Below the pieces are notes generated by a model. The model worked only from the letters and a program-made list of their open reading frames with translations. It was not told the origin of the DNA and did not search any database. A stretch of 64,000 nucleotides of DNA from NCBI RefSeq assembly GCF_030719295.1, contig NZ_CP120997.1, positions 5,529,501 to 5,593,500 on the forward strand, written 5' to 3'. Shown in pieces: positions 15,741-18,949 of the stretch; positions within the stretch are counted from its first letter, which is position 1; each line of letters opens with the position of its first letter. The translations under genes and the position numbers were made by a program. The DNA comes from Streptomyces sp. Mut1 (lineage in GTDB: Bacteria > Actinomycetota > Actinomycetes > Streptomycetales > Streptomycetaceae).

Positions 15741-15910
15741 CGCGATCAGGCGATAAGAGTGGGCTCCGCTTTACCAAATCTTGATAAAAGCGCGCCCTGT
15801 TACCCACAGTAAATCGATCTTTGTGAACTGTCCCGTTTCGCTCATTCTTCCTCCCTTTCGTCCGTCACTGCGGGGCAACCCTGTGTGGCCACCCGGTGTC
15901 GCGATGTCGT

Positions 15911-15943
15911 GGCCCGGTTATCGGGCCGTTACTAGCGAGTAAC
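15911..15943. promoter_or_regulatory. Two abutting palindromes upstream of the DUF6230 cassette
   Basis: GGCCCG-gttat-CGGGCC (15911-15927) is followed with no gap by GTTACT-agcg-AGTAAC (15928-15943). The second has the form of a TetR-type operator. They lie about 350 nt upstream of the first gene, so a promoter with a long leader would be needed for direct control. Confidence 0.55.
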
Positions 15944-16293
15944 GAACCCCCTTGTGCCACGGGCGGGAATGGACCACGATCGGCCACGCTCGGTCCAATG
16001 ACGCCAGTCCGGCAGCCAGTCGGTGCGGCGGCTCCGTTGGGTCCCCGCCGGGCGGGCCGGCGGCAGTGGCGCCGGCTCCGGACAGGGGGGTTCCTGCCGA
16101 CCGGCAGGGCCTGTCCGATGAGGTCGCGCGAACGCGTGGCCAGTGGTTGTCGCTCGGGGGTGATCGCCGGTGATACGGACGCTTTACAGGCCTCTGTACG
16201 CGGGCGCTCTCTTTCCGAGGACGTAGCACTTCTCCCATCCCAGGTCGGGCAGGATGCCAGACCGGAGATGTACGTCCGAGAAGGAGGAAAAGT

Positions 16294-16947
16294 ATGAGTT
16301 CCCAGGTTCGCGGTGGCACGAGATGGAAGCGTTTCGCTGTCGTCATGGTGCCGAGCGTCATAGCCACCGCCGCCGTCGGCGTCGGTCTGGCCCAGGGCGC
16401 GCTCGCCGCGTCCTTCAGCGTGTCGGGGCAGGAGTTCAAGGTCACGGCCGATGAACTGAACGGCGAGAACTTCGTCCAGTACGGCAGCATCGCGACCGAG
16501 GACGGCGCGGACCCCACGAAGAGCGGCAAGGCGCACGCCGTGGCCGTCTCGGGGTTCAGCCACGCCACCATCACCAACATGTGCCAGTCGGTCGTCACGC
16601 CCAACCTGCCGTTCGGTCTCGGCAGTGTGACGCTGAGGCTCAAGGCAGGCGACCCGAAGGACACCGACAAGAAGGTCGACGCCACCGGCCTGTACCTCGA
16701 CGTCTCGGAGCTCAAGGGCGACGCCGAGTTCAGCAACATCGACATCGGTGTGCGCACGGGCGATCTGAAGAACCCGGGCGTCCAGCCCGACGCCGGGAAG
16801 TACGTCAACCCGAACGGGTTCTCGCAGCGGGCCGAGAGGGCCAAGCTGACGGGCGTGCAGCAGAAGGCGTGGGCCACCACGGCGGGCACGTTCAAGCTGC
16901 CGGGTCTGCACCTGTCGCTGGCCAAGGGCGTCAAGGAGTGCTACTAG
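16294..16947 (+). CDS. DUF6230-family exported protein
   Basis: The 217-residue protein has a charged N-terminus and one hydrophobic segment (about residues 14-38, ending in ALAASFSVSG) that can act as a signal peptide or anchor. A beta-rich exported domain follows (FKVTADELNGENFVQYGSI, ATITNMCQSVVTPNLPFG, LYLDVSELKGDAEFSNIDIG, FKLPGLHLSLAKGVKECY) with a conserved-looking Cys pair. GGAGG lies 7 nt before the ATG. It is first in a three-gene cassette with a DUF6114 membrane protein and a long exported protein. I know of no function for this family; a cell-envelope role is inferred from export. Confidence 0.85.
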   Translation: MSSQVRGGTRWKRFAVVMVPSVIATAAVGVGLAQGALAASFSVSGQEFKVTADELNGENFVQYGSIATEDGADPTKSGKAHAVAVSGFSHATITNMCQSVVTPNLPFGLGSVTLRLKAGDPKDTDKKVDATGLYLDVSELKGDAEFSNIDIGVRTGDLKNPGVQPDAGKYVNPNGFSQRAERAKLTGVQQKAWATTAGTFKLPGLHLSLAKGVKECY

Positions 16948-17043
16948 GGCACTCGCCCGGGCGGTCGGGGGCGCACAGCGGGTCCCCGGCCGCCCACCCT
17001 TCTCCTTCTCACAGCAGTACCGGTTCCCAGGGAGCTGTTTTCC

Positions 17044-17622
17044 ATGAGCCCCGAATCCCAAGGGCAGAACGAGCACTACCTCTCCGTCGCCCGGCGAGGC
17101 TTCCGCACCTGGCGGGGTGACCGGCCGTTCTGGGCCGGACTGTTCACCATGCTGGGCGGCTTGCCCATCATGTACTTCCCGTACGCGAACATGCACCTCG
17201 GCAACGTGACGCTGGCGATGTCCACCACGGCCGGCGCCGGTTCGCTGATCATCGGTGTCCTGCTCGTCACGCTGGGCCTGACGATGTGGTTCCACAGCAT
17301 CGTCCGCGTGTTCTCCGGTGTCGCGGCGATTCTGCTGGCCCTCATCTCCATACCCGTCGCCAACATCGGCGGCTTCCTGATCGGCTTCATCTTCGCCCTG
17401 CTCGGCGGCGCGCTCTCCGTGTCGTGGGCCCCGGGCGAGCCGCAGGCGGAGGAGCCCGCGCCGGTCGCGGCCGCTCCCGCCGAGGAGGCCCCGGAGACCG
17501 TCTCGTTCGCGAAGGGCGAGCCGCTTCCCGAGGGTGCGCTCCACGGTGCGGGCGTCCCCGAGCAGCAGGCCGCCTACGACACCACGGTCGAGGCCGACGG
17601 CGGGAGGCATCGTGCGGGGTGA
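17044..17622 (+). CDS. DUF6114-family multi-span membrane protein
   Basis: The 192-residue protein has four probable membrane spans in the first 130 residues (PFWAGLFTMLGGLPIMYFPYA, MSTTAGAGSLIIGVLLVTLGLTMWF, VFSGVAAILLALISIPVANIGG, FLIGFIFALLGGALSVSWAP). An acidic, Pro/Ala-rich cytoplasmic tail follows. The ATG at 17044 has GGGAG upstream. It overlaps the next gene by 11 nt, so translation is coupled. The pairing with DUF6230 is one I recall as recurrent in Streptomyces, but its function is not established. Confidence 0.85.
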   Translation: MSPESQGQNEHYLSVARRGFRTWRGDRPFWAGLFTMLGGLPIMYFPYANMHLGNVTLAMSTTAGAGSLIIGVLLVTLGLTMWFHSIVRVFSGVAAILLALISIPVANIGGFLIGFIFALLGGALSVSWAPGEPQAEEPAPVAAAPAEEAPETVSFAKGEPLPEGALHGAGVPEQQAAYDTTVEADGGRHRAG

Positions 17623-18949
17623 CGACAAGCAGGTGAACGCCGCGGACGAGAGCGGGTTCCAGGAACGCCGGGGGCCGCGCCACGCAGCCCCGAAGAAGTC
17701 GCTGCTGACGAAGCTGCACATGCCCTCGGGCAAGAAGGCGTTCGCGCTCGCCGCGATGCCGACAGCGGTGTTCGTCGGCATGGGGCTCACCCCGAGGCTG
17801 GCGATGGCCGACGACAGCGCGGACATCCCCTTCGCGCCGGGCCCGTGTGTGACCCGCTCCGACGAGCCGAGCGAGTCGGCCGACCCGACGCCCTCCGCGT
17901 CGAAGACGCCGTCCCCGTCGGCGAGCGAGAGCGGAAAGCCGACGCCGGGCACGAGCGGCGAGGCGACCCCGAAGCCGACCGCCACGGGCTCCCCGTCCGA
18001 TGCGGCGTCCGACCCGGCCAAGGACTCGGCCGACAGCGCCGACTCCGCCGACACGGCGAAGAAGAGCACCGACGCCGCCCCGGCCGAGACCCCCGCCGCC
18101 ACGCCCTCGCCCACCAAGTCGACCAACCCGCTCGACCCGCTGGGCCTCGGCGACGCGCTCAAGAAGCTCTTCGAGGGCCCGGACAAGGAGACGGCGAGCC
18201 CGTCCACGAGCGCCACCGCCGAGTCCCCGAAGCCGTCGGCGTCCGCCACGGCGGAGGACAAGGCGCCGGAGAAGTCCACCGAGAAGGCCACGGACGCGGC
18301 GAAGGACACGGCGAAGGACACGGCCGACAAGACCACCGAAGCCATCCGCGAGGCGGCCGGCAAGGCGGGCAAGACGGTCGAGGAGCTGGACGAGGACGTC
18401 AAGGGCACCGACGCCAAGAAGGACGAGGACATCCCGGACGGCGCCAAGCAGCCGTTCCCTTGCCCGACCGCGGACCCGCAGGCCCTGGCCGACGCGAAGG
18501 CGGAGCCCGGCATCCCGCTGCTGCCCAGCGACCCGTGGATCCTGGAGAGCTCGATGCTCACCCTGAACGGGCTCGACTACAAGGGCATCGTCGAGGTGAA
18601 GAAGGGCGACGGCAGCACGAAGAAGGTGCTGAAGTTCACCGCGTCCTCGATCGACATCAAGGACCTGCACCAGCTGACGGTCGGCCCGATGCCGGGCACC
18701 ACCGGCCATGTGCAGGCGCGGAAGGGCTCCACCTCCACGATCCGCAACGGCACGGTGACGATGTACACGGAGGAGCTGAAGGGCAACCTCTTCGGCCTCA
18801 TCCCGATCACCTTCAGCCCGGAGACCCCGCCCCCGCTGAACGTCCCGTTCGCCTTCTTCACCAAGGTGAAGGTGACCCAGGCGGGCCAGTTCGGCGGCAC
18901 GCTGACGATCCCGGGCCTGCACAACTACTTCACGGAGGGCACCGGCTGA
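17612..18949 (+). CDS. Long exported Pro/Ala/Lys-rich protein with C-terminal beta domain
   Basis: The 445-residue product starts with GTG at 17612 (GGGAGG 4 nt upstream), overlapping the DUF6114 gene. About 50 charged residues precede a hydrophobic segment (KKAFALAAMPTAVFVGMG). Some 250 residues of low-complexity Ser/Pro/Thr/Ala then Lys/Asp/Ala-rich sequence follow, which could span the cell wall. Last is a globular domain of about 150 residues (MLTLNGLDYKGIVEVKKGDG to GGTLTIPGLHNYFTEG). The final domain echoes the DUF6230 protein (IPGLH versus LPGLH near the C-terminus), so the two may be distant relatives. No enzymatic motif is visible. Confidence 0.8.
   Translation: MRGDDKQVNAADESGFQERRGPRHAAPKKSLLTKLHMPSGKKAFALAAMPTAVFVGMGLTPRLAMADDSADIPFAPGPCVTRSDEPSESADPTPSASKTPSPSASESGKPTPGTSGEATPKPTATGSPSDAASDPAKDSADSADSADTAKKSTDAAPAETPAATPSPTKSTNPLDPLGLGDALKKLFEGPDKETASPSTSATAESPKPSASATAEDKAPEKSTEKATDAAKDTAKDTADKTTEAIREAAGKAGKTVEELDEDVKGTDAKKDEDIPDGAKQPFPCPTADPQALADAKAEPGIPLLPSDPWILESSMLTLNGLDYKGIVEVKKGDGSTKKVLKFTASSIDIKDLHQLTVGPMPGTTGHVQARKGSTSTIRNGTVTMYTEELKGNLFGLIPITFSPETPPPLNVPFAFFTKVKVTQAGQFGGTLTIPGLHNYFTEGTG

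What the first reader, a model, noticed from the sequence alone, without database searches (positions are those of the whole stretch)
15911..18949. Uncharacterised envelope cassette: DUF6230 + DUF6114 + long exported protein behind paired palindromes
Three consecutive genes encode an exported beta-rich protein, a four-span membrane protein and a 445-residue exported protein. The last has a 250-residue low-complexity spacer long enough to cross the wall, plus a C-terminal domain that echoes the first protein (PGLH near both C-termini). The second and third genes overlap by 11 nt. None has an enzymatic motif. Two abutting palindromes lie 350 nt upstream. The set looks like one envelope machine with no described function.
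Basis: partly seen in the sequence, partly recalled or inferred. Interest (0 to 1): 0.72.

Follow-up and report, generated by a model that had tools for sequence, protein, structure and literature searches.

The report
Fatty-acid-linked envelope cassette of Streptomyces
Three neighbouring Streptomyces genes, the first of a family in which some members are named cholesterol esterase, look like one cell-surface assembly controlled together with fat-burning genes and may help the bacterium take up fatty substrates, though no experiment here proves that.

Summary
Genes A (DUF6230), B (DUF6114) and C (spacer protein) lie as described. They are one unit: 27 of 28 DUF6230 places in 296 phylum genomes have DUF6114 next downstream; A and C occur in 121 of 121 Streptomyces genomes; B and C are fused in 16 of 20 fetched secondary loci. 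The "echo" is real: C's end domain is a diverged relative of DUF6230 (hhalign E 1.1e-6; 60 shuffles far lower).

"No described function" is wrong for A: some members are named cholesterol esterase, the S. coelicolor gene so named rises about 37-fold on Tween, and the leader holds the known che1 RNA.

New here: one of the two palindromes is an operator-like site (TTACT-N4-AGTAA), 65 sites against 2 for a control pattern in 21 genomes, shared with fatty-acid oxidation loci but also with other genes. A lacks a lipase motif and a conserved histidine and has no significant PDB fold match.

I read it as a fatty-acid-linked lipid-acquisition assembly: regulon link good, uptake inferred. Main rival: A is a new-type esterase and B-C its anchor.

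The parts
15769..15813 (.). Upstream conserved block: CTTTACCAAATCTTGATAAAAG, then GTTACCCACAGTAAA, a degenerate copy of a second operator-like site (GTTACT-N3-AGTAA in 6 of 8 orthologues)
15911..15927 (.). First palindrome GGCCCG-N5-CGGGCC; arms not conserved in orthologues, probably chance
   Evidence: (by eye)
15927..15944 (.). Operator-like palindrome CGTTACT-N4-AGTAACG, conserved before gene A
16079..16169 (+). che1 RNA (Rfam RF02935)
   Evidence: cmscan 105 bits, cut-off 54.1, E 2.3e-16; fold z -2.81
16294..16947 (+). Gene A: exported all-beta DUF6230 protein, 217 aa, cysteines 97 and 216
17044..17622 (+). Gene B: DUF6114 membrane protein, 192 aa
17612..18949 (+). Gene C: N-terminal hydrophobic stretch, cysteine-flanked low-complexity spacer, C-terminal DUF6230-related domain; 445 aa; overlaps B by 11 nt
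18512..18946 (+). C-terminal domain of C, related to A by profile-profile comparison

Best explanation
The cassette is a lipid-acquisition assembly of the actinobacterial envelope, controlled with fatty-acid oxidation genes. Shown by sequence: A and B are one conserved unit; C joins it in Streptomyces and some relatives and is often fused to B in secondary copies; C's outer domain is related to A; and an operator-like site in front of A recurs at loci for acyl-CoA synthetase, thiolase/FabG/MaoC, acyl-CoA dehydrogenase/SCP2 and a membrane Fe-S reductase. Inferred: long-chain acyl substrates relieve a TetR-type repressor at that site; A is exported and carries (or frees) long-chain acyl lipid in the wall or outside; the tethered A-like domain of C receives it; B passes it to or through the membrane, where acyl-CoA synthetase traps it. 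The che1 leader adds an unknown layer of control.
For: Unit: 27 of 28 DUF6230 places have DUF6114 next downstream; A and C in 121 of 121 Streptomyces genomes, own genome included; B and C in one open frame in 16 of 20 fetched secondary loci plus L067 and L074. Related domain: hhalign prob 82.6, E 1.1e-6, score 35.7 against at most 7.1 in 60 column shuffles. Regulon: TTACTN4AGTAA 65 sites in 21 Streptomyces genomes, control pattern 2. Of the 55 loci that hold the 56 sites outside the own genome: 17 at the cassette (17 of 20 genomes), 13 at loci with an acyl-CoA-synthetase-type gene, 10 of these also with some of thiolase/FabG/MaoC, 1 at SCP2 plus acyl-CoA dehydrogenase, 2 at a membrane Fe-S reductase. 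In a second lineage (family f18, read as Rubrobacteraceae) the A-B pair lies near a FadJ-type gene in 5 of 7 loci and beside TetR genes in 7 of 7 (Pfam-checked in two and two loci, the rest by matching sequence starts). Induction: S. coelicolor SCO5420 up almost 37-fold on Tween40 against glucose, other genes of the fatty-acid pathway 3- to 12-fold (passages, 12, 96); SCO5420 equated with A by gene order and name. Non-lipase hint: GxSxG in 5 of 120 A proteins, no conserved histidine.
Against: No lipid-binding or transport evidence. No PDB fold reaches significance for A or the C domain, so a lipid-binding fold is not shown; the lipocalin, FABP, LolA and LptF rows are insignificant. The name given to some members is an enzyme's. 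22 of the 55 site loci are not obviously fatty-acid genes: 8 luciferase-like/aldo-keto reductase, 8 TetR plus secreted propeller, 1 universal stress protein, 5 unassigned; own-genome sites also lie by enolase and a universal-stress-like gene. The operator is absent from the f18 loci and the repressor is unidentified. A 'putative cholesterol esterase' SACTE_4612 of another Streptomyces rises on xylose and xylobiose against glucose (passage; family not checked), and a DUF6230 gene of S. albulus is listed among moderate constitutive promoters (passage), so the Tween effect may be partly relief from glucose. The first, smaller A-C comparison was weak (prob 8.4).
Confidence: 0.5

Rival explanations
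1. A is a real secreted ester hydrolase of a new, non-alpha/beta type (an actinomycete cholesterol esterase); B and C anchor or display it, and the cassette serves breakdown of lipid esters outside the cell.
For: At least 5 of the 120 listed homologues are named cholesterol esterase (P0012, P0025, P0039, P0105, P0117); title of Xiang et al. 2007 seen in a reference list; the authors of the Tween study read the rise of SCO5420 as ester hydrolysis (passage). Same regulon evidence.
Against: GxSxG in only 5 of 120; no conserved histidine (H81 86 of 121, H90 21, H206 22). I see no shared candidate catalytic set between A and C domain (by eye). That the purified enzymes were DUF6230 proteins is recalled, not verified.
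Confidence: 0.3
2. The cassette is a wall or surface structure used on hydrophobic substrates (wetting or membrane protection), not a carrier or enzyme.
For: Envelope topology; in one f18 locus (L080) a neighbouring 843-aa protein carries SLT and M23 peptidoglycan-hydrolase domains, and the matching neighbour in L084 hits the A profile at residues 41-165 of its frame (27.6 bits, E 4.2e-7).
Against: The site shared with intracellular fatty-acid catabolism loci fits nutrient use better.
Confidence: 0.15
3. Three unrelated genes that happen to be neighbours.
For: The 96-nt gap between A and B leaves room for separate promoters; a terminator-like match sits at 17021-17037, though shuffles give about as many (2 found, mean 1.5).
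Against: Co-occurrence, adjacency, B-C fusions and A-C relation.
Confidence: 0.02

Closest known systems
DUF6230 (PF19741), some members named cholesterol esterase
   Same: A is over the DUF6230 cut-off; at least 5 of 120 listed homologues carry the esterase name, most others 'DUF6230 family protein' or none
   Different: The name ignores DUF6114, C, the operator and the lack of a conserved triad; the biochemistry could not be read here
che1 RNA (RF02935)
   Same: Full-length match in the leader, and in 3 of 3 orthologous Streptomyces loci scanned (L060, L062, L064)
   Different: No match at the 9 other loci scanned (paralogues and other families); its function is called unknown in one passage seen
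Fatty-acid oxidation regulons under TetR repressors
   Same: Palindromic site at loci of acyl-CoA synthetase, thiolase and acyl-CoA dehydrogenase genes
   Different: Repressor unknown; an envelope cassette is a main target. One paper search (7 papers listed) and passages of one of them gave a different motif; a wider literature check was not made
Envelope lipid carriers such as Lpt, Lol and Mce systems (recalled)
   Same: Works-like only: free and tethered copies of one beta domain plus a membrane partner
   Different: No significant fold match; sequence kinship was not tested beyond Pfam and NCBIfam

Membership tests
DUF6230 (PF19741) | Pfam profile over curated cut-off | tested here: met
   A: 186.3 bits against 27.5
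DUF6114 (PF19609) | Pfam profile over curated cut-off | tested here: met
   B: 113.8 bits against 27.9
DUF6230, for the C-terminal domain of C | Pfam profile over curated cut-off | tested here: not met
   C has no Pfam match; so it is called related to, not a Pfam member of, DUF6230
DUF6230, for the C-terminal domain of C | Profile-profile relation along the full domain | tested here: met
   prob 82.6, E 1.1e-6, columns 12-175 with 1-143; 60 shuffles at most 7.1 against 35.7. With fewer rows prob 8.4, E 0.004
che1 RNA (RF02935) | Covariance-model score over gathering cut-off | tested here: met
   105 bits against 54.1
Serine lipase/esterase (alpha/beta hydrolase) | Conserved GxSxG nucleophile motif | tested here: not met
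   5 of 120 A proteins
Serine lipase/esterase (alpha/beta hydrolase) | Conserved Ser-His-Asp triad | tested here: not met
   None of the window's three histidine columns is conserved in 121 sequences; best H81, 86 of 121
Serine lipase/esterase (alpha/beta hydrolase) | Alpha/beta hydrolase fold | tested here: inconclusive
   After an N-terminal helix the predicted model has strands and no helix of 4 or more residues; no significant fold match
Cholesterol esterase (actinomycete type) | Hydrolysis of cholesteryl esters by the purified protein | not testable with these tools
   Paper not held
Lpt/Lol/lipocalin-like lipid carriers | Shared fold with a solved member | tested here: inconclusive
   Only insignificant matches

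The most novel reading that the evidence does not exclude
DUF6230-DUF6114-C is an undescribed class of envelope lipid importer in Actinomycetota: one beta fold, possibly new, used twice, once free outside and once tethered to a membrane base, delivering long-chain acyl lipids across a thick wall, under one fatty-acid operator with the oxidation pathway; the cholesterol esterase name is then a misreading or a side activity.
Probability: 0.3. Interest if true: 0.85.

Novelty: new variant of a known kind. Interest (0 to 1): 0.6.

Why it matters
How Streptomyces, with a thick wall, takes up long-chain fatty acids and sterol or Tween esters is, to my knowledge, not settled. This gives a testable candidate found in 121 of 121 Streptomyces genomes sampled, ties two domains of unknown function and an RNA of unknown function to fatty-acid use, and offers an operator-like site for a regulon whose regulator can be looked for.

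Full report
What is there. In a Streptomyces chromosome (window = G000:C1:5529501-5593500; genus from homologue names) three genes run in one direction: A 16294-16947, B 17044-17622, C 17612-18949, the last two overlapping by 11 nt. A is DUF6230, B is DUF6114, C has no Pfam match. Upstream lies a thioredoxin/TPR gene and downstream, on the other strand, a pyruvate-kinase-like frame (read by eye). In S. coelicolor SCO5420 is called cholesterol esterase and SCO5423 is pyk2 (passages of PMC7494193); equating A with SCO5420 rests on this spacing and the name, not on an alignment.

One unit. In 296 genomes drawn from the phylum, DUF6230 occurs in 19 and DUF6114 over its cut-off in 21. Of 28 DUF6230 places, 27 have DUF6114 next downstream; the exception is the third copy in G062. 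The two DUF6114 genomes without a Pfam DUF6230 hit (G026, G098) have one beside it with a broader profile (L084, L085). Two more DUF6114 genomes (G274, G292) are below the cut-off. C's end domain is found in 12 of 296 genomes, one of them (G033) partial and marginal. In 121 Streptomyces genomes, own included, DUF6230 and the C domain are in 121 each. In the eight Streptomyces orthologous loci fetched (L059 to L066) A, B and C follow in order and B and C are separate frames. I also fetched 20 secondary loci, 19 chosen for weak C matches and one (L195) for two DUF6230 matches side by side: B and C share one open frame in 16 (in L195 the C match is weak and split, in L192 the B match is partial), are separate in 3 (L190, L191, L193), and L203 has neither A nor B. 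L067 (another family) and L074 (a Streptomyces paralogue) are fused, L068 is not. Other copies are A-B with no C match (for example L069 to L073).

Enzyme or not. GxSxG occurs in 5 of 120 A proteins. In 121 Streptomyces A sequences none of the window's three histidines is conserved (best 86 of 121), while S99, D136, C97 and C216 are, at 95% or more. All 120 A and all 120 C proteins have exactly two cysteines; in C they flank a spacer of 175 to 215 residues, median 193. A disulfide there would loop out the spacer, which weakens the wall-crossing reading; it is untested. These sets are the 120 listed best hits of 2755 and 2635, so they are close relatives; the f18 A proteins show no cysteine (by eye).

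Control region. The second palindrome, CGTTACT-N4-AGTAACG, is exact in 7 of 8 orthologues. Its core TTACTN4AGTAA occurs 9 times in the own genome with 0 for the backward-read control, and 65 times in 21 genomes with 2 for the control. I fetched the 56 sites outside the own genome in 55 loci. Assigned by homology: 17 before A (17 of 20 genomes; 350 to 381 nt from the site to the start of the A match, with a second piece at 229 in L130; 16 of 17 keep the full CGTTACT-N4-AGTAACG), 10 at loci with an acyl-CoA-synthetase-type gene and some of thiolase, FabG and MaoC, 3 with the synthetase-type gene alone, 1 at SCP2 plus acyl-CoA dehydrogenase, 2 at a membrane Fe-S reductase resembling EtfD (recalled), 8 at a luciferase-like/aldo-keto reductase pair, 8 at a TetR plus secreted propeller-like protein, 1 universal stress protein, 5 unassigned. 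In the own genome the nine sites lie at a thiolase/FabG pair, SCP2 plus acyl-CoA dehydrogenase (two sites), a biotin carboxylase, the luciferase-like pair, enolase beside an Rpf-like gene (by eye), a universal-stress-like gene (two sites) and A. Between the site and A lies che1 RNA. A passage of PMC8079986 lists it before SLIV_11405 in S. lividans among elements validated by RNA-seq, under cholesterol metabolism; a passage of PMC8388888 reports it in S. ambofaciens; a passage of PMC11678152 says its function is unknown.

A second lineage. In the seven f18 loci (L079 to L085; read as Rubrobacteraceae) the operator is absent, but a TetR gene lies beside the A-B pair in 7 of 7 and a FadJ-type gene within 6 kb in 5 of 7 (L080 to L084; not in the stretches of L079 and L085), with thiolase-like frames in L082 and L083. 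Pfam confirmed FadJ in L080 and L084 and TetR in L079 and L080; the others are read from matching sequence starts. In S. coelicolor SCO5420 rises almost 37-fold on Tween 40 against glucose, other genes of the pathway 3- to 12-fold (passages).

Against. 22 of 55 site loci have no evident fatty-acid role. A 'putative cholesterol esterase' in Streptomyces sp. SirexAA-E rises on xylose and xylobiose against glucose (passage of PMC12772271), and a DUF6230 gene of S. albulus is listed as a moderate constitutive promoter source (passage of PMC12835213); neither was checked to be this gene. They suggest that glucose relief, not fatty acid alone, may raise expression.

Judgement. The unit and the A-C relation are shown by sequence, the regulon link is good but incomplete, and lipid handling is inference. 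Whether A cleaves or carries lipid is open: the name given to some members says the first, the lack of a conserved triad leans to the second. Xiang et al. 2007 (Biochim Biophys Acta 1774:112-120) could not be read; I saw its title in a reference list of PMC4098958 and recall the rest.

Noticed in passing
L080 2509-5040, L084 2646-5087, L083 2224-4647 (family f18): Large exported protein beside the A-B pair; in L080 it has SLT and M23 peptidoglycan-hydrolase domains, in L084 its frame hits the A profile (27.6 bits); L083 by eye.
   Followed up: partly
L075 5646-8649: A Streptomyces A-B pair followed by a gene that reads like a phytoene/squalene synthase joined to an undecaprenyl diphosphate synthase (by eye).
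   Followed up: no
L077 5113-12116: Tandem A-B-A-B copies followed by an exported protein, a flavin/2Fe-2S reductase and a fatty acid desaturase.
   Followed up: partly
window 15769-15813: Conserved block CTTTACCAAA..TTGGTAAA next to a 3-nt-spaced copy of the operator, about 130-160 nt upstream of the main site.
   Followed up: partly
L127, L133, L136, L138, L143, L145, L152, L170: These 8 site-bearing Streptomyces loci hold a TetR gene and a secreted beta-propeller-like protein gene (in L136 the site lies between them).
   Followed up: partly
L098, L123, L129, L146, L155, L158, L164, L165, L175: The operator-like site lies between a luciferase-like monooxygenase and an aldo-keto reductase gene, centre GATC in 7 of these 9.
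   Followed up: no
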